Positions 40,777 through 48,948 of a stretch of 64,000 nucleotides of DNA are shown here, one piece after another. The translations under genes were made by a program, and so were the position numbers. The first letter of the stretch is position 1, and every line of letters begins with the position of its first letter. Origin of the DNA: an uncultured Planctomycetaceae bacterium (GTDB taxonomy: Bacteria; Planctomycetota; Planctomycetia; Planctomycetales; Planctomycetaceae). The notes beneath the pieces are model-generated. The model ran no database searches. It saw only the letters and a program-made list of their open reading frames with translations, and was not told the DNA's origin. The stretch is from NCBI GenBank assembly GCA_937916515.1, contig CALFSX010000214.1, forward strand, positions 1-64,000, written 5' to 3'.

Positions 40777-42555
40777 TCAATTCCAGGTCAGTTTCGCACA
40801 ATCAAACGTAAACTCGCGAGTGTTGTCGGTGAATTCAGTTCCTGTCCAAATGGTACCACCCGATAGCTTAATGGTGGTACCGTCCAGTTTAGCCGAATGA
40901 CGGTAGATCCAACCTGGCCCGGTGCCTGAAGATCGCACCTGCTCTATCTTCCATGTTTTGCAGTCCAGTCGGTAGATCGGCGTGTTTCCGGGACGTCGAT
41001 CATCGGGATAACCAAGGCACCCGACAACATAGATGAAGCCGTCTACAAACGTCGCTGTGTGAAAATCGGTCGGCGGAAACACTGATCGCGGGTATGTGAA
41101 GATCCGAAATTCGCCTCGACCATCATGTACGACCACATCATTGTAAATGCAGAAGTCCGGATCATAGTGGTCTTCGTGTTCGCCTCCGACTTCAACGAAC
41201 TCACCGCTTGGCAACTCTGTCAACGATTGCCCGAATCTGGAGAAACACCAGATTGGATGTCGCCCAAAGATAGACGCCTTTCCGTACTGCCGGCTGGCCG
41301 CCCAGCCTGAGGCTCGAGTTCTCACCATCTCATTCTTGAAAGCATGCTCGACTTGATCCGGATTCGCCTTGCCAAATATCGGCTTGCTCTGACGGCGATA
41401 CTCTGCGGACGTAGCATTCAATGGAAGTGACGAATCACGACTGAAAATGTCAGCACGGTTTTCCGATGAAATCGCCGCCCCGTCAAGCCCCGCATCAGAC
41501 AGCAACCGATAAGCTTCCATGCTGCCAACGTGAGTCATCAGGTTTTCGCCGCTCGAACACTTCTGCGAAGGATCAGCATCTGCAGCCAACAGTACTCGCA
41601 AACACTGACAGTCGTCGTGCTGAATAGCCTTTTCCAGCGGCGTGGTGCCAAAGTCATCGCATGGTGCGTTTAGATCAGGTCCGGATTGCAGCAGCCACTC
41701 CAAAATTTCGACGCGATTATGGTCAATCGAAAATCCAATCGCCGTCTGTCCGCAGCGACCGGTTGCCGACTGATCACATCCGGCAGCAATCAGCTGCTGC
41801 GCGATTCGCAAGTGGCCACAGGCGACGGCCAATAAAAAGGGAGTACGTTCCCAAAGGTCTCTATGCTCAATGTCGGCACCCGATTCGATGGCCCGCGCGA
41901 CGTCGGCTGGACTATCGTTGACAACTGCCCAACAAAGATCGGGCCACGCAAGTTGCTCATCATTCGCGTCGCACGAAAGCAGGACCTTGATGATGTCAAT
42001 TTGCAAAGTGCGTGAACATACGCTAAGCGGAGACTCACCCCATGACGAGCACGCATTTACGTCGGCTCCCGCATCAACAAACAACTCCACAATTCTAAGT
42101 TGTTCGTCCGGTGCAGTTTCGACGGGACGATGAAACGAACTCAGCAAAGGTGTATAGCCACCGGGATCTGCCCATGAGACATTCGCCCCATTTTTGATTA
42201 GCAATTCAATAGTGCGAAGCGACCCGTGTTTTGCCGCGATCCCCAACACCGATTCGGCAGTGTAGGGCATGGCTCGAGCTTGCTCGATGTACGTCACGTC
42301 CATTCCCTCTTCTTTCATGAAAGAGACAGTACTCTCATCCATTTCAAACACAGGCTTGGGGATCGTTTCGGCATTCAGGTTTGCTCCGTTGTCAATGAGC
42401 CATTCAATAATGCGTTCATCGACGTTCGGTTGCATCACGGCCAACATCAGGGGAGTCAGCCCCTCATCATTGAAAGCCTCGATGTCGCGAGCAACTCGCT
42501 TGTCTGCTGCCAACGACTCAATGTCGCCATTCTTAATGTAGTCGTGAATTTTCAA
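40777..42555 (-). CDS. Ankyrin-repeat protein with C-terminal Kelch-like domain
   Basis: A 592-residue protein without a signal peptide. The first ~370 residues are ankyrin repeats, about eight, some degenerate (GLTPLMLAVMQPN, ESVLGIAAKHGSLRTIELLIKNGANV, ERTPFLLAVACGHLRIAQQLIAAGCD, GTTPLEKAIQHDDCQCLRVLLAADAD). After a linker, residues about 420-592 read like a half Kelch propeller: FGQSLTELPSGEFVEVGGEHEDHYDP, HTATFVDGFIYVVGCLGYPD, RLDCKTWKIEQV and HSAKLDGTTIKLSGG. Ankyrin-Kelch joining is unusual in bacteria. The domain set suggests a protein-binding scaffold. It lies just beyond the terminator of the rtcB operon on the same strand but looks unrelated to it. Confidence 0.87.
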   Translation of the reverse strand: MKIHDYIKNGDIESLAADKRVARDIEAFNDEGLTPLMLAVMQPNVDERIIEWLIDNGANLNAETIPKPVFEMDESTVSFMKEEGMDVTYIEQARAMPYTAESVLGIAAKHGSLRTIELLIKNGANVSWADPGGYTPLLSSFHRPVETAPDEQLRIVELFVDAGADVNACSSWGESPLSVCSRTLQIDIIKVLLSCDANDEQLAWPDLCWAVVNDSPADVARAIESGADIEHRDLWERTPFLLAVACGHLRIAQQLIAAGCDQSATGRCGQTAIGFSIDHNRVEILEWLLQSGPDLNAPCDDFGTTPLEKAIQHDDCQCLRVLLAADADPSQKCSSGENLMTHVGSMEAYRLLSDAGLDGAAISSENRADIFSRDSSLPLNATSAEYRRQSKPIFGKANPDQVEHAFKNEMVRTRASGWAASRQYGKASIFGRHPIWCFSRFGQSLTELPSGEFVEVGGEHEDHYDPDFCIYNDVVVHDGRGEFRIFTYPRSVFPPTDFHTATFVDGFIYVVGCLGYPDDRRPGNTPIYRLDCKTWKIEQVRSSGTGPGWIYRHSAKLDGTTIKLSGGTIWTGTEFTDNTREFTFDCAKLTWN

Positions 42556-42615: not shown

Positions 42616-42655
42616 AAACAAAAGGTGCGGTCTCCGAATGACCAGAGACCGCACC
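42616..42655 (-). terminator. Rho-independent terminator behind rtcB
   Basis: On the minus strand GGTGCGGTCTC and GAGACCGCACC form a perfect 11-bp stem around a 10-nt loop, followed by TTTTGTTT. It begins 5 nt beyond the rtcB stop codon and marks the end of the rsr-Y RNA-rtcB operon. Confidence 0.93.
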
Positions 42656-42659
42656 ATCT

Positions 42660-44150
42660 TTAATCGTCCGCCTTGTCGCCATCTTTTATGACAAAGCGAG
42701 CCTTCAGTCGGGCTACTTCCGAAGCCAGTCCGGCAGATTTCACAGAACGCAGAACTTCGTCGAAATCTTTGTAGGCCGCCGGAGCTTCATCTTTGGGATA
42801 GCTGCGGCAGTTGCTCAGAATATCGGCGTCTTCAAACGACTGATCAACCGTTGCCTGGTCCAGTTCGCGGATCGCTCGTTTGCGACCCAAAGCTCGACCA
42901 GCTCCATGATTCACGCTGTAGCAGCTAATCGCCGCTCCTTCGTTAGCCACCATAACAGCTGAACCCGCCTGAGGATTACCCGGCAGAAGAATGGGGTGGC
43001 CCGTTTCTTCGTACAACGTTCCCTTTAAAGCGTGGTGCCCCGCTGGGAACGCGCGAGTCGCTCCTTTGCGGTGAACCCAGCTGGGCTTGTTGTCCACGAT
43101 TTCCTTGCGAGCAATGTTATGACTGATGAAGTACACCAGCTGCCCGGTCACGCCAGGCAGCACTTCCTGAAACGCTTCCAGAATCAGTGCGTTAATCAGC
43201 AGATGGTTGACCGTCGCAAAGTTGGCTCCCAATGCCATGTCGTCCAGATAATCATTCGCTTCAGAAGTTCCCAGAGGCGCGTAAACAAGTTCACGGTCGC
43301 GTCCCGGCAAGGGAATATCCCACCTGGCAAACTTTTCCTGCAACGCTTTGAACTGTCCCATCGCCAGGTTGTGCCCGATGCCTCGCGATCCACAATGAGA
43401 CAGAAACGCAACGTGTCCGTCCTTCAGGCCGAACGTGTCTGCCGCCTTGCGAGCTCGTTCGTTATCGCAAAGTTCAACAACTTCACATTCTCCGAAATGG
43501 TTGCCTCCACCGTAAGAACCAAGCTGCTTCATCTTGCCGGGAAATTTATGACGGAAGTAGCCAACTTCAAGATGCCGCTCCATACGAATTGCCAAAGCGT
43601 CGCGAGATTCATCGTGTCCAACATGGAACGAATCTTCGCACCGCTCAGCCCATTCAGCCGGAATTCCCAGCTGATTGCAGACATCTTCTGAAGCGCCTTC
43701 CACCATGACCTGAAGACCAAGCTGTTCGCTCACGGGACGAGACTTGAGCGCATGTCGCTGGCCTCGTCCCGCTCCCGTTGGAGTACGTTCACAGATGGCA
43801 TTGATGATGGCTCGACGAATCGGCCGATCGATAATCTGATCAGCCGGCAGGTCCAACTGAAGCAGGCTCATCGAACACTTGATATCGACTCCAACGGGAC
43901 CAGGATACACGTGAGTCGGCGAAACCATCGCACAACCAACGGGTGCCCCGTAACCGCAATGAGCGTCAGGGTTCAGCACAAGGTCGGTCACGCCAGGCGC
44001 CATTCGCGAGTTAATGGCCTGTTGCAGACACATGTCGTCGAACGTATTGCGAATCGCTTCCGTACCGATGACCGTGATGGGCTTTGTCGATGAGCCTGTT
44101 GTCGGCAGAATCGCCGTTGCTTCGCCTGTTGGTATCATTTCGAATGTCAT
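42660..44150 (-). CDS. rtcB: RtcB, RNA-splicing/repair ligase (3'-phosphate to 5'-OH)
   Basis: A 496-residue RtcB ligase, which joins RNA ends having 2',3'-cyclic phosphate or 3'-phosphate with 5'-OH ends using GTP and Mn2+. Metal ligands appear as VGVDIKCS (D89, C92), GGGNHFGE (H217), SHCGSRGIGH (H252) and ISHNIARKE (H344); the GMP-accepting histidine is H415 in CYSVNHGAGR. The NPDAHCGYGAPVG start of the active site is also present. It follows an array of Y RNAs and rsr in one operon and ends at a strong terminator. No archease or rtcA gene is beside it. Expression is likely sigma-54/RtcR-controlled, and the hairpin of the last Y RNA just ahead of it may attenuate it. Confidence 0.97.
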   Translation of the reverse strand: MTFEMIPTGEATAILPTTGSSTKPITVIGTEAIRNTFDDMCLQQAINSRMAPGVTDLVLNPDAHCGYGAPVGCAMVSPTHVYPGPVGVDIKCSMSLLQLDLPADQIIDRPIRRAIINAICERTPTGAGRGQRHALKSRPVSEQLGLQVMVEGASEDVCNQLGIPAEWAERCEDSFHVGHDESRDALAIRMERHLEVGYFRHKFPGKMKQLGSYGGGNHFGECEVVELCDNERARKAADTFGLKDGHVAFLSHCGSRGIGHNLAMGQFKALQEKFARWDIPLPGRDRELVYAPLGTSEANDYLDDMALGANFATVNHLLINALILEAFQEVLPGVTGQLVYFISHNIARKEIVDNKPSWVHRKGATRAFPAGHHALKGTLYEETGHPILLPGNPQAGSAVMVANEGAAISCYSVNHGAGRALGRKRAIRELDQATVDQSFEDADILSNCRSYPKDEAPAAYKDFDEVLRSVKSAGLASEVARLKARFVIKDGDKADD

Positions 44151-44189
44151 GTTATTTGAACTTCTTCGTGAAGTGTCTAGATATGCAGG

Positions 44190-44213
44190 AAAACAAAAAG
44201 CCCCTCGTTACGA
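44190..44213 (-). terminator. Y4 stem plus U-tract, possible attenuator ahead of rtcB
   Basis: The 3' arm of the Y4 stem (TCGTAACGAGGGG) runs straight into CTTTTTGTTTTCC on the minus strand, so the closed Y RNA stem followed by U-rich sequence looks like an intrinsic terminator located about 50 nt ahead of the rtcB start. Partial read-through would then set rtcB expression (inference). Confidence 0.6.
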
Positions 44214-44365
44214 CAAGAATTGATGAAACGTTTCGCGCTCTACCAAACTGAGCTACGGCCCCGAAATACAGCCTCCAGGAAGCTGCCGGAATGGAGCCGA
44301 TGGGATTCGAACCCATGACCTCGTGAATCAGAATCATGTAGTTCCATCTGCATTCGTAACAAAGG
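44201..44365 (-). ncRNA. Y RNA 4 (YrlA-like) with complete circularly permuted tRNA module
   Basis: About 165 nt. The lower stem pairs CCTTTGTTACGA (44354-44365) with TCGTAACGAGGG (44201-44213). It is followed by the conserved Ro-binding core: GAATGC plus TGGAACTACAT on one side and TTCATCAATTCTTG on the other, with an upper stem GATGGAAC/GTTTCATC. Inside lies a tRNA in permuted order: T arm 44300-44316 (ATGGG-TTCGAAT-CCCAT), acceptor 3' strand CGGCTCC at 44293-44299, a 30-nt cap (44263-44292) holding a small hairpin, acceptor 5' strand GGGGCCG at 44256-44262, TA, and the D arm GCTC-AGTTTGGTA-GAGC at 44237-44253. The acceptor strands form 7 bp with one G-U. Tools may miscall it as a split or partial tRNA. 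It resembles the tRNA-like module described for bacterial YrlA RNAs. Confidence 0.9.
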
Positions 44366-44377
44366 ATTTTCGAAGCT

Positions 44378-44417
44378 GGAAAGCAGAGCCTAAGTTATAG
44401 AAGGCCTGCGGCTTTCC
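44378..44417 (-). other. Strong hairpin between Y3 and Y4
   Basis: On the minus strand GGAAAG and CTTTCC enclose a second helix CAG-GCCT/AGGC-T-CTG with one bulged T and a 10-nt loop. It lacks the Ro-binding core, so it is not a fifth Y RNA; it could be a processing site or terminator between Y3 and Y4. Confidence 0.6.
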
Positions 44418-44436
44418 ACTTTTGTAACACGTTTAA

Positions 44437-44542
44437 CAAAAGTACTCAGCGACAAGGATTGATGAGATTTTCCGTTTTCACGGAGCGAGATTCGAACTCA
44501 CAAAACCGATGTAATCCCACCAGCATTCGCTGAGTATTTTTG
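44437..44542 (-). ncRNA. Y RNA 3 with reduced tRNA-like module
   Basis: About 106 nt. The lower stem CAAAAATACTCAGCGA / TCGCTGAGTACTTTTG pairs at 15 of 16 positions. The Ro-binding core is GAATGCTGG-TGGGATTACAT with CTCATCAATCCTTG, and the upper stem is GGTGGGAT/ATCTCATC with G-U pairs. Inside, a T arm (GTGAG-TTCGAAT-CTCGC, 44485-44501) is directly followed by a 5-bp helix TCCGT-GAAA-ACGGA (44471-44484) that replaces the acceptor stem with a GAAA tetraloop cap; the D arm is missing. It reads as an intermediate between the full tRNA mimic and a plain Y RNA. Confidence 0.88.
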
Positions 44543-44572
44543 TGCGCGATCCCGTTTGAAGGGAACGAGCAC
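44542..44572 (-). other. Hairpin between Y2 and Y3
   Basis: GTGC...GCAC and TCCC...GGGA form two stacked 4-bp helices separated by a small internal loop on the minus strand. It touches the end of the Y3 stem and could guide processing of the array transcript. Confidence 0.45.
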
Positions 44573-44590
44573 TGTCTAAAGAAAGCAAAC

Positions 44591-44659
44591 CGAAAGTCGA
44601 CAAGGGTTTGTTGAGACGTGGACATGGGTAAATGTAGTCCCAACGGCATTCGACTTTCG
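44591..44659 (-). ncRNA. Y RNA 2, minimal form without tRNA module
   Basis: About 69 nt. A perfect 10-bp lower stem CGAAAGTCGA/TCGACTTTCG is followed by the Ro-binding core GAATGCCG-TTGGGACTACAT and CTCAACAAACCCTTG, an 8-bp upper stem GTTGGGAC/GTCTCAAC with one G-U, and a 19-nt loop. No T or D arm is present. The gap to Y1 is only 9 nt, so the two are probably cut from one transcript. Confidence 0.9.
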
Positions 44660-44668
44660 TGTTTTGAA

Positions 44669-44801
44669 GAGGCTGACAAGTGTTTGCTGAGATATATGCC
44701 GTATGCTCTATCCAGTTGAGCTACTGACTGCCGAAGCACTCAGGCAGGACTCGAACCTGCAACCTTACGGTTAAAATGTAATCCCAACGGCATTCAGCCT
44801 C
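44669..44801 (-). ncRNA. Y RNA 1 (YrlA-like) with complete permuted tRNA module and UUCG cap
   Basis: About 133 nt. Lower stem GAGGCTGA/TCAGCCTC; Ro-binding core GAATGCCG-TTGGGATTACAT with CTCAGCAAACACTTG; upper stem GTTGGGAT/ATCTCAGC. Inside is a permuted tRNA: anticodon-type helix CCGTA (44766-44770)/TACGG (44699-44703); T arm GCAGG-TTCGAGT-CCTGC (44744-44760); acceptor strands CTGAGTGC (44736-44743) and GCAGTCAG (44724-44731), 7 of 8 paired, closed by a C(UUCG)G tetraloop; TA; and D arm GCTC-AACTGGATA-GAGC (44705-44721). The Y stem occupies the place of the anticodon loop. This is the first Y RNA behind rsr. Confidence 0.92.
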
Positions 44802-44810
44802 AGTTTCCAA

Positions 44811-44826
44811 CAAGGGCTTCGCCCAA
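44811..44826 (+). repeat. Dispersed repeat, copy I (partial)
   Basis: AACAAGGGCTTCGCCC, only the start of the repeat, immediately beyond the 5' end of Y RNA 1. Confidence 0.65.
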
Positions 44827-44902
44827 CGCCGTTAAGGATTCTTGAGCGGGAAAACAGTGAGCTTAAGCGAGAGATCGCAGTCTGAAGTTTGGGTGTGTTT
44901 AA

Positions 44903-45096
44903 GTCACGAAGTGACGGTAGGTATTAGCCACGGGCGCGAGCCCGTGGAACAGCATTCAACAGTCGTTTTCAGTCCTGAAGGGACGACAGGCAACAACGCG
45001 AAATGATACGCCTATCGTCCCTTCGGGACTTTCCGTCTGACTTTTTGCAAACCACGGGCTCGCGCCCGTGGCTACTACCTGCCGTCACTTCGTGAC
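44903..45096. repeat. 194-bp nested inverted repeat (REP-like)
   Basis: GTCACGAAGTGACGG at the left end mirrors CCGTCACTTCGTGAC at the right. Nested inside are AGGTA/TACCT, two CCACGGGC-CGAGCCCGTGG palindromes (one per arm) and CCTGAAGGGACGA mirrored by TCGTCCCTTCGGGA. Each arm folds on itself and the two arms also pair. It lies between rsr and the Y RNA array and would form a very large hairpin in the operon transcript. Confidence 0.85.
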
Positions 45097-45170
45097 TGAA
45101 ACGCATTCGGCATTACAGCCTCTTCCCCCACTTTAAACAGCGTTTTTGCTTTTTAAAATCCTTCACGGCG

Positions 45171-45252
45171 CTGGGCTTCACCCTTGACCCAGTGGCGTGG
45201 CCTGCGAAAGCACGTGGAACGTTTCAATCGCCGAGCCGCTCCGTTGTCGCTA
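45171..45252 (+). repeat. Dispersed 84-bp repeat, copy E
   Basis: Contains CTGGGCTTCACCCTTGACCC (hairpin weakened), GTGGCGTGGCCTGCGAAA and the complete AATCGCCGAGCCGCTCCG end. Antisense to the rsr-rtcB operon; not beside a plus-strand stop codon. Confidence 0.85.
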
Positions 45253-45303
45253 CGATCAACGTGCTCGCACCGTACGCTTCATTTTCAGTAAGACTCTAAA
45301 TCA

Positions 45304-45353
45304 GTGGATGGACCGCAGAGCATGCGATCTTCGAGCGTACTCTGCAAATCCAC
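45304..45353 (-). other. Hairpin just downstream of rsr
   Basis: GTGGAT/ATCCAC outside and GCAGAG/CTCTGC inside form a long hairpin 15 nt after the rsr stop codon. There is no U-tract, so it may stabilise the rsr message or be a processing site rather than a full terminator. Confidence 0.5.
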
Positions 45354-45367
45354 ACACCGTTAATGCC

Positions 45368-46942
45368 CTAAATTGAAATCTTCTCGATTTCATTCACCCA
45401 ATGTCCTTCACTGAAGCGTCCGTGAGCCACGTCCGCGATCAATTGGAACACATGGTCGCTGAAACCACCAACGTTGATGATGTCCGCCGATTCCTTTGCC
45501 TGCGTTGTTCCGTAGGGCTGGATATCGATGCAAATCATCTTCGCCTGACGATTTCGTTTCTTGAACACGTTCCACTGGCTCATTGTTTCAGTCGCCAGCT
45601 TTCCGGCCCATGCCCGATTTGTATCAATCCATGATTCGTTGTCGGAAACATAGATGATCAGATCGCCTTTGGCATTCTGCTTATTCAAATGCGCCAGCGG
45701 AGCACTGCAGTTGGTTCCGCCAGACGGTAACTTCGCCAGCTTCTCAGCATTTGTCATTACCGAATCTTTAGGATTCAAGCGGCAGTTCACGACATGATCA
45801 CTGAACGGAACAACCTCCGTGTTCGGATTGCGTCGCATCACAGCAGCTGCCACAAGAGCCGCCACATCGATGCAACGTGTTGCCGTTGTTGCACCCGCAC
45901 GGTATCCAGTAACGGGTGAATGCATGGATCCCGAAATGTCCGGGAAGACATACACTTTTCCGTCGACGCCGGGCACGTTTTGCGTCGCGATTTCCATCGC
46001 ATCCTGCAACGCATTCCGAACATCAGATGGCACCGCCTGATCAACATTGTTCCATGCCGTCAACAATTGGTATGGGAAGACTTTCGCTTTTCGAATCAGC
46101 TCTACATTTCGCAAGCGATTCGCGATTACCTTCACCATTTCCTTGTTGTTGAAGACACCGTGTCGAGCAAACGTGTTCAAGTTCATTCGCGTCATTTGCC
46201 ATGAAGCATTGCGAGCAATCCGTTCCCAGTCTGCCTTCGTCAGCGGCAACGCTGTCAGCATTTGGAAAGGCACATCCGGAGCAACCACCTTTCCAGGGTT
46301 TGTGTTCCGTTTGAACTTTTCGTATTGCTGCACAATTTCGGGCAGGTCATCTTTGTTGCACTCCTTGCCGATCAGATAAGCGAACAATGCGTTACGTGAA
46401 GCTGATGCAGGCTTGGGATGCACCATCTTGACGACGTCTGCCAGTGAAGGGTCGTTTCCGACGGAACCTGCAAACAACTGCTTGTCGGTTTTTGCTTCCA
46501 TCCACTGTAAGATCAATCGCTTTGGCAATGTTCCCAGGCTCTTTCGACCAACAACTCCTGAACGCATGATCTGCACAAAGTTTCGCAGCATCTTTGGGTT
46601 GTCGATCACTCGATCAAAAATTTCCGCCAGCAGGCCTGGTGACTTCACGGACAGGATCGCGCACAACAGGGCCGGCATGTCTTTCATGTAACCGGACTGT
46701 CGAGCGTACAAGGCAGTTTTCGCGATGAACTCCGGGCTGATTTCTGCAGTCAGCTTTAGAACCGTTTCCAGTTGTTCTGCACCAGATGCGTAGAACGTCT
46801 GGCTAAGTGAACCAGTGGCTGCATATTGAGCCAGCTGATGCTTAGCTGTCATGGAATAAGCTCGGCCACCCGCTTCGTTAACCGTGTCGGCCAAAACAGG
46901 TTGCTTACCAAAGAAGCTCTGAAAAAGTGATTTGTTCGCCAT
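45368..46942 (-). CDS. rsr: Rsr, bacterial Ro60 orthologue (TROVE plus VWA domains)
   Basis: A 524-residue ring-shaped RNA-binding protein. Residues about 15-330 form the TROVE HEAT-repeat ring (LKLTAEISPEFIAKTALYARQ, RNALFAYLIG, MTRMNLNTFARHGVF). From about 330 follows a von Willebrand A domain with the MIDAS motif DISGS (D335, S337, S339), SGGTNCSAPL and YVSDNESW. Ro proteins bind Y RNAs on their outer face and pass misfolded or single-stranded RNA through the ring, in bacteria tethering PNPase. The start has AGGAG 10 nt upstream. It is the first gene of the operon with the Y RNAs and rtcB, behind a sigma-54-type promoter and divergent from rtcR. Confidence 0.96.
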   Translation of the reverse strand: MANKSLFQSFFGKQPVLADTVNEAGGRAYSMTAKHQLAQYAATGSLSQTFYASGAEQLETVLKLTAEISPEFIAKTALYARQSGYMKDMPALLCAILSVKSPGLLAEIFDRVIDNPKMLRNFVQIMRSGVVGRKSLGTLPKRLILQWMEAKTDKQLFAGSVGNDPSLADVVKMVHPKPASASRNALFAYLIGKECNKDDLPEIVQQYEKFKRNTNPGKVVAPDVPFQMLTALPLTKADWERIARNASWQMTRMNLNTFARHGVFNNKEMVKVIANRLRNVELIRKAKVFPYQLLTAWNNVDQAVPSDVRNALQDAMEIATQNVPGVDGKVYVFPDISGSMHSPVTGYRAGATTATRCIDVAALVAAAVMRRNPNTEVVPFSDHVVNCRLNPKDSVMTNAEKLAKLPSGGTNCSAPLAHLNKQNAKGDLIIYVSDNESWIDTNRAWAGKLATETMSQWNVFKKRNRQAKMICIDIQPYGTTQAKESADIINVGGFSDHVFQLIADVAHGRFSEGHWVNEIEKISI

Positions 46943-46994
46943 GATGCTTGACTCCTGTTTCGTCCATTACTTGTGTTTGATAAGACAATCACAA

Positions 46995-47010
46995 GGCAGC
47001 AGGCGTGCCA
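46995..47010 (-). promoter_or_regulatory. Sigma-54 promoter of the rsr-Y RNA-rtcB operon
   Basis: On the minus strand TGGCACG-CCTG-CTGCC matches the -24/-12 consensus TGGCACG-N4-TTGCA, with exactly 12 nt from the GG to the GC doublet. Transcription would start near 46984, about 42 nt ahead of the rsr ATG. The divergent gene encodes a sigma-54 activator, as expected. Confidence 0.88.
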
Positions 47011-47020
47011 AAACAAACAC

Positions 47021-47037
47021 GAGTTTTCGAGAAACTC
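47021..47037. promoter_or_regulatory. 17-bp palindrome close to the sigma-54 promoter
   Basis: GAGTTT-TCGAG-AAACTC lies 11 bp upstream of the -24 element. It is too close for a typical enhancer, but could bind a repressor or IHF-like factor; function unknown. Confidence 0.35.
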
Positions 47038-47122
47038 CATAAATCACCTGCAGCAAACATTTTACGTCTCAAAAAAGGCATCAATGCCGCTGGAAGCGAC
47101 AATTCAGGAGCCAAGCGTTAAG

Positions 47123-47154
47123 ATACCCAATGATAGACGTCTATCCTGTGGTAT
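47123..47154. promoter_or_regulatory. 32-bp interrupted dyad, candidate RtcR enhancer site
   Basis: ATACC-N4-GATAGACGTCTATC-N4-GGTAT: a perfect 14-bp central palindrome flanked symmetrically by a second pair of 5-bp arms. Its centre is about 155 bp upstream of the predicted sigma-54 start site and about 210 bp ahead of rtcR, the usual place for an enhancer bound by a sigma-54 activator. Confidence 0.7.
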
Positions 47155-47255
47155 ATTTATCGACTGCTTCCCTGATAAGGGCAGAGCGAATCCGAAACGC
47201 TCGATCACGCTGTCTTCAAACAATTGAACTTGTTCACCTTGAGTCATATACCCAG

Positions 47256-47339
47256 AGCGACAACCGAGCGGCTCGGCGATTAGTACTTTCCACCTTCTCT
47301 CACATGCCACGCCACAGGGTCAAGGGCGAAGCCCTTGTT
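47256..47339 (-). repeat. Dispersed 84-bp repeat, copy F
   Basis: Inverted full-length copy, close to copy B, with intact CAAGGGC-TTC-GCCCTTG hairpin. Its hairpin end lies 10 bp ahead of the rtcR start codon, where a ribosome site would be expected. Confidence 0.9.
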
Positions 47340-47349
47340 GGATTGTTCG

Positions 47350-48948
47350 ATGAAAAAGAAGACTGTTGTTATTGGGATCCTGGGAACTCAGCTGGATGCA
47401 GGCCGCGACCGCAAGCGTTGGGAAAAGTGGCGCCCGACAGTGTCTGCCTGTCAGCACGACGACCTGCTGATTGATCATTTCGAATTGCTTTACCCGATCA
47501 GTCATCACACACTGGCCAAAAGCATCAAAGCCGACCTGACATCCGTCTCACCCGAAACAAATGTTCAATTGCACAACGTCGAATTCGAAGACGCGTGGGA
47601 TTTCGAAGAAGTTTTCGGGACGTTACATGAGTTCGCTCGCGGTTACGAATTCAATACAGAAGCCAACGATTACCTGATTCACATCACGACAGGTTCGCAC
47701 GTTCAGCAAATCTGTTTGTTTCTGTTGACTGAGTCGCGACATCTGCCAGGCACACTGCTGCAGACCAGCCCGCCAAAGCGAAAGATGTACGGTACTCACC
47801 CAGGAACGTACTCAATTATCGACCTCGATCTTTCTCGCTACGACGCACTGGCTGCTCGGTTTGCTGTTGAGCAGCAGGAAGGCCAGCAGTTCCTGAAGTC
47901 TGGCATTGAAACTCGCAACAAGGCCTTCAACGATATGATTGAACGGATCGAGCGTGTCGTAATCGCCAGCACGGCTCCCATCCTTCTAACCGGACCGACG
48001 GGTGCGGGCAAGACTCATCTGGCGCGTAAAATCTATGAACTCAAACGCCGCCGCGAACAAATTCGAGGCGACTTCGTCGAGGTCAACTGCGCGACGCTGC
48101 GAGGCGACCAAACGATGTCCGCTTTGTTTGGTCATGTGAAAGGGGCGTTTACAGGAGCAGCGGTGGCTCGTATGGGGCTACTGAAATCGGCGGATGGTGG
48201 ATTGTTGTTTCTGGATGAAATCGGTGAACTTGGCCTTGATGAACAAGCCATGCTATTGCGAGCCATTGAAGAAAAACGTTTCTTACCAGTCGGTTCTGAC
48301 AAAGAATCAGAAGCTGACTTTCAGTTGATCGCGGGTACCAATCGTGAATTGACTGAACGAGTTGCTGCAGGTCTGTTTCGCGAAGATCTGTTTGCGAGAA
48401 TCAATCTGTGGACATTCCAGTTACCAGGCCTCGCTCATCGGGTCGAGGATATTGAACCGAATCTGGAATTCGAACTGGAACGCCAATCAGGGGGAATCGG
48501 GCAGAAGACCAGCATGACTCGGGAAGCCCGGCAGGAGTTCCTGGACTGGGCGACGTCAACATCCGCCAGCTGGTCAGCAAATTTCCGCGACCTGACTGCG
48601 GCCGTAACCAGAATGGCGACTTTGGCCGGCGACGGTCGAATCGGAGTCGAGGAAGTCCGAGAAGAAATTCAACGTCTGAGCGAATCGTGGGGAACAGACT
48701 CGGGCGGAATAGCATCGAAAGGTTTGCAACAGTTTCTAACAGAGGATCAGATTGCCGGTATTGACCTGTTCGATCAGGCTCAACTGGCAGCCGTGTTGGG
48801 TGTGTGTCGACAGGAAAAAACTCTGGCCGCGGCTGGGCGCAGGCTGTTTGCGGTGTCGCGAAGAACACGATCATCAACGAACGATTCGGATCGGCTTAGA
48901 AAATATCTTGCCAGGTTTGAGCTTGATTGGAAGACGGTTTGCGAGTGA
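47350..48948 (+). CDS. rtcR: RtcR, CARF-domain sigma-54-dependent activator of the RNA-repair operon
   Basis: 532 residues from the ATG at 47350; MKKKTVVIGILGTQLDAG is the usual family start. Residues 1-185 are the CARF-type sensory domain, thought to bind oligonucleotides with cyclic-phosphate ends. The AAA+ domain has Walker A GPTGAGKT (215-222), the sigma-54-contacting GAFTGA loop (265-270) and Walker B LLFLDE (285-290). The C-terminal region (AAVLGVCRQEKTLAAAGRRLF ... NDSDRLRKYLARF) is the DNA-binding part typical of RtcR. It is divergent from rsr across 407 bp holding the sigma-54 promoter and a candidate enhancer dyad. No ribosome site is seen; a dispersed repeat ends just before the start codon. 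Confidence 0.96.
   Translation: MKKKTVVIGILGTQLDAGRDRKRWEKWRPTVSACQHDDLLIDHFELLYPISHHTLAKSIKADLTSVSPETNVQLHNVEFEDAWDFEEVFGTLHEFARGYEFNTEANDYLIHITTGSHVQQICLFLLTESRHLPGTLLQTSPPKRKMYGTHPGTYSIIDLDLSRYDALAARFAVEQQEGQQFLKSGIETRNKAFNDMIERIERVVIASTAPILLTGPTGAGKTHLARKIYELKRRREQIRGDFVEVNCATLRGDQTMSALFGHVKGAFTGAAVARMGLLKSADGGLLFLDEIGELGLDEQAMLLRAIEEKRFLPVGSDKESEADFQLIAGTNRELTERVAAGLFREDLFARINLWTFQLPGLAHRVEDIEPNLEFELERQSGGIGQKTSMTREARQEFLDWATSTSASWSANFRDLTAAVTRMATLAGDGRIGVEEVREEIQRLSESWGTDSGGIASKGLQQFLTEDQIAGIDLFDQAQLAAVLGVCRQEKTLAAAGRRLFAVSRRTRSSTNDSDRLRKYLARFELDWKTVCE

What the first reader, a model, noticed from the sequence alone, without database searches (positions are those of the whole stretch)
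42616..48948. Complete Ro60-Y RNA-RtcB RNA-repair locus under RtcR/sigma-54 control
Seen: rtcR (CARF plus sigma-54 AAA+) is divergent from rsr (TROVE/VWA), four Y RNAs and rtcB, ending in an 11-bp-stem terminator. Known: Rsr, Y RNAs, RtcB and RtcR form the RNA-repair operon in some proteobacteria. Inferred: in this planctomycete the Y RNAs lie inside the operon and there are four of them, so RNA sensing (Ro), guide RNAs and ligation are made as one stress-induced unit.
Basis: partly seen in the sequence, partly recalled or inferred. Interest (0 to 1): 0.92.

Follow-up and report, generated by a model that had tools for sequence, protein, structure and literature searches.

The report
RNA-repair operon with four Y RNAs
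A planctomycete carries a known kind of RNA-repair gene cluster, probably stress-induced, whose four small Y RNAs share one protein-binding stem but carry different amounts of a tRNA look-alike, a pattern that recurs in related clusters and hints that they steer one protein to different partners.

Summary
In detail: rtcR is divergent from rsr, four Y RNAs and rtcB, which ends in a strong hairpin terminator. A sigma-54-type site lies 52 nt before rsr; the genome has rpoN. Y RNAs inside such an operon are not new: Salmonella rsr-yrlBA-rtcBA has them, and rhizobia share this layout. The operon is a new member of a known kind.

What I did not find in the literature I could search is the make-up of the array. 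All four Ys share a Ro-binding core (two covarying helices) but carry graded tRNA modules: two full YrlA types, one T arm plus acceptor-like hairpin, one 69-nt stem with no module. Such mini-Ys occur in 17 of 24 comparable planctomycete loci and show two-sided changes at 13 of 16 pairs. Eleven related Ys carry a tRNA-like module opened at the D loop instead of the anticodon.

Among 27 sampled relatives of its family none has rtcR or this Rsr type, which suggests horizontal gain. rtcA lies 38 kb from rtcB, so "complete" is too strong. Transcription and Rsr binding are untested. The key Y RNA papers were not held, so novelty of the array is provisional.

The parts
47350..48948 (+). rtcR, CARF-type sensor plus sigma-54 AAA+ activator
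   Evidence: Pfam RtcR 272 bits, Sigma54_activat 172 bits
47122..47155 (.). 34-nt dyad, candidate RtcR enhancer (weak evidence)
   Evidence: 1 of 100 shuffles as good; similar dyads at a 22-nt spacing in 7 relatives, three of them close rhizobia
46995..47010 (-). sigma-54-type promoter site for rsr
   Evidence: TGGCACGCCTGCTGCC, 52 nt before the start codon, 5 of 500 shuffles as good (consensus recalled)
45368..46942 (-). rsr, Ro60 orthologue (TROVE plus vWA)
44669..44801 (-). Y1, 133 nt, YrlA type: T arm, acceptor-like stem, D arm
   Evidence: Rfam 62 bits; fold z -3.2
44591..44659 (-). Y2, 69-nt mini-Y: Ro-binding stem without tRNA module
   Evidence: Rfam 29.6 bits; R1 58 bits (a training member); fold z -4.6
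44443..44536 (-). Y3, 94 nt: T arm directly followed by an acceptor-like hairpin, no D arm
   Evidence: Rfam 42 bits; fold z -4.8
44201..44366 (-). Y4, 166 nt, YrlA type with an extra hairpin on the acceptor-like stem
   Evidence: Rfam 71.7 bits; fold z -3.3
42660..44150 (-). rtcB, RNA ligase
   Evidence: Pfam 338 bits; solved RtcB ligases E 6e-63
42624..42655 (-). intrinsic terminator after rtcB
   Evidence: 14-pair hairpin plus TTTTG; z -6.2
44894..45251 (.). repeat elements between rsr and Y1: inverted Acido-Lenti-1 pair and one copy of a dispersed 79-nt repeat

Best explanation
This is an RtcR-controlled RNA-repair operon of the Salmonella rsr-yrlBA-rtcBA kind, with an enlarged Y RNA array. 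Shown by sequence: gene order, four Y RNAs with one shared Ro-binding core, graded tRNA-like modules, a sigma-54-type site and a terminator. [quoted passage not shown] RtcB reseals cut RNAs. My own inference: the Y RNAs are interchangeable adaptors for one Rsr. The full types (Y1, Y4) tether PNPase or other tRNA-binding proteins and can be modified on D and T loops; Y3 offers only the T arm/acceptor half; mini-Y2 occupies the Rsr surface without a tether and acts as a pure gate or competitor. The ratio of the four would set how much Rsr goes to decay, repair or idle. RtcA is encoded elsewhere, so its signal-amplifying role is not obviously under RtcR control here.
For: Protein families and homology. 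Y RNAs: all four by Rfam and by the motif/helix scan, two by model R1. Core covariation over 25 Ys: 102 two-sided cells against 26 in shuffles and at most 21 in slid controls (helix 1 was required by the scan that chose the sequences). Mini-Ys alone: 13 of 16 pairs with two-sided changes, 63 cells against 16 in shuffles and at most 19 slid. The classes recur: of 66 planctomycete Ys, the script YrlA type, 17 mini, 16 T without D (14 with an acceptor-like hairpin), 3 D-loop-opened, 2 with only the 5' D half recognised, 5 other. Sigma-54-like sites at similar distance in relatives; rpoN present. Published mechanism: passages of PMC7790460, PMC9879122, PMC8394870.
Against: No transcript data. The 570-nt gap between rsr and Y1 holds repeats, including an inverted pair that could form a large hairpin, so read-through to the Ys and rtcB is uncertain. 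3 of 14 divergent loci lack a good sigma-54 site and 2 more are weak, while 1 of 14 stretches of the other Rsr type (L058), which have no rtcR, scores as well as the window. The acceptor-like hairpin is not convincing in 7 of 14 T-class Ys. 7 of 24 planctomycete loci of this Rsr type are not in my mini-Y set (one of these, L071, has a 91-nt Y that the script does call mini). rtcA is absent from the operon. That different modules recruit different partners has no direct evidence.
Confidence: 0.6

Rival explanations
1. The Y2 and Y3 units are not separate RNAs but elements of the rsr-rtcB transcript: Rsr binds them there, so that they protect, process or autoregulate the message.
For: They lie in the transcribed gap of the operon, with no sigma-70-like promoter found on their strand; the mini-Y is the unit nearest rsr in 11 of 17 loci.
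Against: All units share one complete Ro-binding core with closed outer helices, as expected of free Y RNAs; Salmonella Y RNAs are encoded in the same place.
Confidence: 0.2
2. Mini and T-only Ys are decaying duplicates of full Ys without a function of their own.
For: Tandem array; lengths and modules vary widely; some loci lack them.
Against: Mini-Ys keep both helices through two-sided changes at 13 of 16 pairs and recur in 17 of 24 loci; the acceptor-like hairpin beside the T arm exceeds chance in sum (73 against 51, 0 of 1000).
Confidence: 0.1
3. The tRNA-like Ys are decoys for anticodon nucleases or other tRNA-cutting enzymes rather than tethers for PNPase. PMC7790460 names a competitive-inhibitor role as one possibility.
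For: The tRNA modules are close to real tRNAs; the T half of Y4 matches the genome's own tRNA-Thr(GGU) over 26 nt.
Against: In the YrlA type the anticodon arm is missing; mini-Ys carry no tRNA part at all.
Confidence: 0.1

Closest known systems
[quoted passage not shown]
   Same: Divergent rtcR, sigma-54 control, rsr then Y RNAs then rtcB in one direction
   Different: Two Y RNAs there, four here, one stem-only and one without D arm; rtcA in the operon there, 38 kb from rtcB here; dinJ-yafQ follows there, an ankyrin/Kelch-like gene here
Rhizobial and methanotroph plasmid operons (Rhizobium etli, R. leguminosarum, Shinella, Methylosinus trichosporium), annotated rtcR / RNA-binding or hypothetical protein / RtcB
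   Same: Same order and orientation; Rsr 51-57% identical; 3-4 Y RNAs by the script in the rsr-rtcB gap
   Different: Each carries a D-loop-opened Y that the window lacks; no mini-Y by the script, though an 88-nt Y in Methylosinus may be one
Planctomycetota bacterium strain ZRK32 (L080) and unnamed relative L063 (G198)
   Same: rtcR, rsr (63%), several Ys and a window-type rtcB (67% and 74%)
   Different: rtcA follows rtcB in both; L063 also has a D-loop-opened Y; three Ys found in ZRK32, no mini among them
YrlA, Rfam RF02553
   Same: Y1 and Y4 match from end to end with T and D arms
   Different: Only Y4 passes the cut-off; Y2 and Y3 lack arms of the model
Deinococcus radiodurans Rsr-Y RNA-PNPase complex RYPER (passages of PMC8394870, PMC4726728)
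   Same: Ro60 protein with Y RNAs
   Different: A tether to PNPase is not tested here

Membership tests
RtcR-regulated RNA-repair operon | RtcR (CARF-type N domain plus sigma-54 AAA+) divergent from the operon | tested here: met
   Pfam; positions
RtcR-regulated RNA-repair operon | sigma-54 promoter before the first gene | tested here: met
   As a sequence only: 46995-47010, 5 of 500 shuffles as good; activity not testable
RtcR-regulated RNA-repair operon | rtcB ligase in the operon | tested here: met
RtcR-regulated RNA-repair operon | rtcA cyclase in the operon (common, not universal) | tested here: not met
   rtcA at contig position 82207-83181; 15 of 24 loci of this Rsr type have it within the fetched stretch
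Ro60/Rsr | TROVE (HEAT ring) plus vWA domain | tested here: met
   vWA_Ro60 and a partial TROVE match; alignment with PDB 2nvo over residues 21-495; no structure predicted
Bacterial Y RNA | Conserved Ro-binding stem | tested here: met
   All four; covariation
Bacterial Y RNA | Bound by Rsr in cells | not testable with these tools
   -
YrlA (RF02553) | Score above Rfam's gathering cut-off (69 bits) | tested here: inconclusive
   Met by Y4 (71.7); not met by Y1 (62), Y3 (42), Y2 (29.6)
YrlA (RF02553) | tRNA-like domain with T, acceptor and D arms | tested here: inconclusive
   Met by Y1 and Y4; Y3 has no D arm; Y2 has none of them

The most novel reading that the evidence does not exclude
Operons of this kind carry a maintained set of Rsr adaptors: Y RNAs that share one Ro-binding stem and display tRNA in graded pieces (none; T arm plus acceptor; T plus acceptor plus D) and, in 11 related loci, in a second circular permutation in which the stem replaces the D loop and an extra arm stands in the anticodon position. 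Each piece would recruit a different tRNA-handling partner, with the stem-only mini-Y as a gate without tether.
Probability: 0.35. Interest if true: 0.75.

Novelty: new variant of a known kind. Interest (0 to 1): 0.5.

Why it matters
[quoted passage not shown] A natural series of Y RNAs that differ mainly in how much of a tRNA they carry would let each module be tested in one cell. The mini-Y isolates the Ro-binding stem; the D-loop-opened form of relatives would show that the tRNA mimic can be tied to the stem at two places. If the modules recruit different proteins, Rsr would be a programmable platform for damaged RNA.

Tried and rejected
Inverted 79-nt repeats around rsr as an invertible switch: rejected; it is a dispersed element with 43 matches in the genome, this copy included.

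In-operon Y arrays as a planctomycete invention: rejected; found in alphaproteobacteria and Pseudomonas and published for Salmonella.

Further Y RNAs in the own genome: the six weaker Rfam hits score at most 22.5 bits; five of them overlap tRNA genes, the sixth (C292, 15.7 bits) was not followed.

General TATCCA/TGGATA scan for an RtcR site: near chance (20 of 31 loci against 15.5 expected). Only the 22-nt spacing stands out (7 of 31 loci at two mismatches, next best spacing 4). A motif-free symmetry profile did not single out that place.

D-loop-opened class: MFE support is mixed. L083 folds into the exact four-arm junction (z -5.7); L063 (-4.0), L085 (-2.8) and L073 (-2.2) give partly matching folds; L067 none (z +0.2) (5 of the 11 folded). 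The D stem hardly varies, so covariation neither supports nor refutes it; L070 and L073 have a mismatch in it and L082 is misaligned there.

The viral-contig search with RtcR confirmed no relative. The genome-contig search with Rsr gave one, ZRK32. No structure prediction or fold search was run. Salmonella's own YrlB could not be compared; no Salmonella genome was in a collection that I searched.

Literature: searches. No held paper contains planctomycet*, RtcB and RtcR together. Papers on bacterial Y RNAs that I tried (Chen 2013, Chen 2014, Sim and Wolin 2018, Wang 2018, Sim 2020) were not held. From recall only, Chen 2014 reports Y RNAs in over 250 species with at least one tRNA-like Y in each, so Ys without that domain may be described there; I could not check whether mini or D-loop-opened Ys are in print.
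Full report
What is there. The window is contig C214:1-64000 of an 8.3-Mb genome, 99% complete. It holds rtcB (42660-44150, -), four Y RNAs, rsr (45368-46942, -) and divergent rtcR (47350-48948, +). Pfam supports all three genes (the TROVE match is partial). Rsr aligns over residues 21-495 with a solved Rsr, 2nvo, and RtcB with solved RtcB ligases. Rfam's YrlA model finds the four Y RNAs at 71.7, 62, 42 and 29.6 bits; the next hit in the genome has 22.5 bits, and five of the six weaker hits overlap tRNA genes. After rtcB comes a 14-pair hairpin with a TTTTG tail, z -6.2.

Control region. Upstream of rsr, TGGCACGCCTGCTGCC (46995-47010, -) has the GG-N10-GC form of a sigma-54 site (consensus recalled); 5 of 500 shuffles score as high. 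Of 14 loci with divergent rtcR and rsr, this one included, 9 have a site that at most 6 of 500 shuffles reach, 32-64 nt from the rsr start; L068 and L076 are weaker; L042, L044 and L077 have none. Among 14 stretches of the other Rsr type, without rtcR, one (L058) reaches the same level. The genome has rpoN. A 34-nt dyad at 47122-47155, centred 196 nt before the rsr start and about 135 nt before the sigma-54 site, resembles dyads in several relatives. A 22-nt spacing of TATCCA/TGGATA-like halves is the commonest of 33 spacings at each of three mismatch limits (at two mismatches 7 of 31 loci, three of them close rhizobia), but a looser scan was near chance. PMC4987338 lists the RtcR site as NK (passage), so this is a lead only.

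The Y RNAs. All four have GA-AUGC on the 5' side and CUUG-UC on the 3' side, an outer helix of 8-13 pairs and an inner helix of 8-10 pairs. In 25 Y cores from 11 loci the helices show 102 two-sided cells against 26.3 in shuffles and at most 21 when slid. The outer helix was required by the scan that chose the cores, so the inner helix (93% paired, 5 of 8 pairs with two-sided changes) is the fairer test, although the cores were cut at their best inner stem. A relaxed scan of 24 planctomycete and 6 proteobacterial loci finds 85 Ys against 0.25 in shuffles. The modules inside differ: Y1 and Y4 carry T arm, acceptor-like stem and D arm (YrlA type); Y3 carries a T arm directly followed by a 5-bp hairpin in the acceptor position (1 of 1000 shuffles) and no D arm; Y2, 69 nt, carries none.

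Is the series real? I took 18 mini-Ys (57-85 nt) from 17 of 24 planctomycete loci of this Rsr type (chosen). Their alignment has two-sided changes in 13 of 16 pairs, 63 cells against 16.4 in shuffles and at most 19 slid. They are therefore kept as structured RNAs. The script gives 17 minis in 16 loci, a slightly different list (with L071, without L063 and L073). The mini is the Y nearest rsr in 11 of the 17 loci; here it is second. Ys with a T arm but no recognised D arm are 16 of 66 in planctomycetes (one of them, L070, reads by eye as D-loop-opened). Over the 14 T-class Ys tested, the summed acceptor-hairpin length is 73 against 51 in shuffles (0 of 1000), but 7 of the 14 show none on their own. 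Three of six proteobacterial Ys called mini or not is not the pattern: all three minis there are in Pseudomonas silesiensis.

A second permutation in relatives. In the YrlA type the Ro-binding stem stands where the anticodon arm would be; that a bacterial Y RNA is a circular permutation of tRNA is known (passages of PMC11472068). In 11 Ys of 11 loci (6 planctomycete, 5 of 6 proteobacterial; 8 classed by the script, 3 by eye) the order is D-arm 3' half, an extra arm, T arm, acceptor-like stem, D-arm 5' half, so that the stem replaces the D loop. The R. etli member folds into exactly this four-arm junction, z -5.7; three others are weaker and L067 gives none (5 of 11 folded). The D stem hardly varies, so covariation is silent. 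The window has no such Y.

Spread and history. Of 392 planctomycete genomes, 40 have an rsr at E 1e-20 and 52 an rtcR at E 1e-80, this genome included in each. Of 27 other sampled members of its family, 9 have an Rsr, 43-46% identical, and 18 none; no other genome of its family or class is among the rtcR matches. In 15 genomes of its family and class the Ys found, 1-2 each, lie upstream of rsr, and none of the 14 such stretches fetched shows rtcR. The window's Rsr groups with genomes of other families (with L063 and L064 98/93; with L062 added 96/86), apart from the family and class clade (100/100, branch 1.15). Horizontal gain is the simplest reading; differential loss is not excluded. In the 24 loci of this type rtcR is adjacent in 14, an rtcB in 16 and rtcA in 15, within stretches some of which are cut by contig ends. 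The rtcB place is filled by at least three subfamilies 24-38% alike (one of the third group, L050, is of the other Rsr type). Named relatives with the same layout: Rhizobium etli, R. leguminosarum, Shinella, Methylosinus and Planctomycetota bacterium ZRK32, which also has rtcA.

Mechanism. Published: tRNA fragments ending in 2',3'-cyclic phosphate bind RtcR and switch on rsr-yrlBA-rtcBA, and RtcA expression suffices to activate it (passages of PMC7790460); YrlA's stem binds Rsr, its tRNA-like domain binds PNPase and is modified by DusA and TruB (passages of PMC8394870). Applied here: damage signal, RtcR, sigma-54 promoter, then Rsr, Ys and RtcB together. I infer that the graded modules make the Ys different adaptors for one Rsr, the mini-Y being a gate without tether. 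Not shown: transcription as one unit (the 570-nt gap after rsr holds repeats), Rsr binding, partner choice. rtcA sits at 82207-83181; the best sigma-54 score near it (12.0 of 15, inside its coding region) is not convincing, so the positive loop through RtcA may be missing.

Verdict. The operon is a new member of a known kind; Ys inside the operon, and four of them, are not unusual. The graded array with conserved mini-Ys, and the D-loop-opened Ys of relatives, are a variant that I did not find in the held literature, with the caveat that the key papers were not available.

Noticed in passing
L083:7044-7180, L063:7568-7705, L085:6192-6321, L073:2721-2846 and 7 more (alignment A3): Y RNAs whose tRNA-like module is opened at the D loop, with an extra arm in the anticodon position: a second circular permutation beside YrlA.
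   Followed up: partly
window 44201-44366 (Y4): The T half of Y4 matches the organism's own tRNA-Thr(GGU) over 26 nt; score 27, against at most 23 in 43 cross-isotype tRNA comparisons. Possible gene conversion or specific mimicry.
   Followed up: partly
window 47122-47155: 34-nt dyad, candidate RtcR enhancer; similar dyads centred about 170-190 nt before rsr in seven relatives.
   Followed up: partly
contig C214 position 82207-83181 (outside the window): rtcA lies 38 kb from rtcB; a sequence like the dispersed repeat stands upstream of it (read by eye).
   Followed up: partly
window 44902-44947 and 45052-45097: Inverted pair of Acido-Lenti-1 RNA-like elements between rsr and the Y array.
   Followed up: no
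window 45173-45251 and 47256-47334: Copies of a dispersed 79-nt repeat with 43 matches in the genome; one ends just before the rtcR start.
   Followed up: yes
L069:5052-5214: A Y RNA whose D arm looks like that of a tRNA-Leu (read by eye), unlike its neighbour.
   Followed up: no
G149:C267:44301-44435, G178:C72:170313-170448, G265:C17:84742-85330: YrlA hits (66.8 bits each; four up to 75.9 bits in G265) on contigs other than the one that holds rsr: orphan or second Y RNA loci.
   Followed up: no
L087:7873-9554: A Shinella plasmid has a second RtcB-family ligase and prfH right after the Rsr-RtcB genes.
   Followed up: no
window 40777-42555: Ankyrin-repeat protein with a weak Kelch match directly after the operon's terminator.
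   Followed up: no
phage collection: 342 phage records encode an Rsr-like protein, mostly Mycobacterium and Streptomyces phages; the closest full-length one, in Myxococcus phage Mx1 (52%), showed no Y RNA by the scan or by R1.
   Followed up: partly
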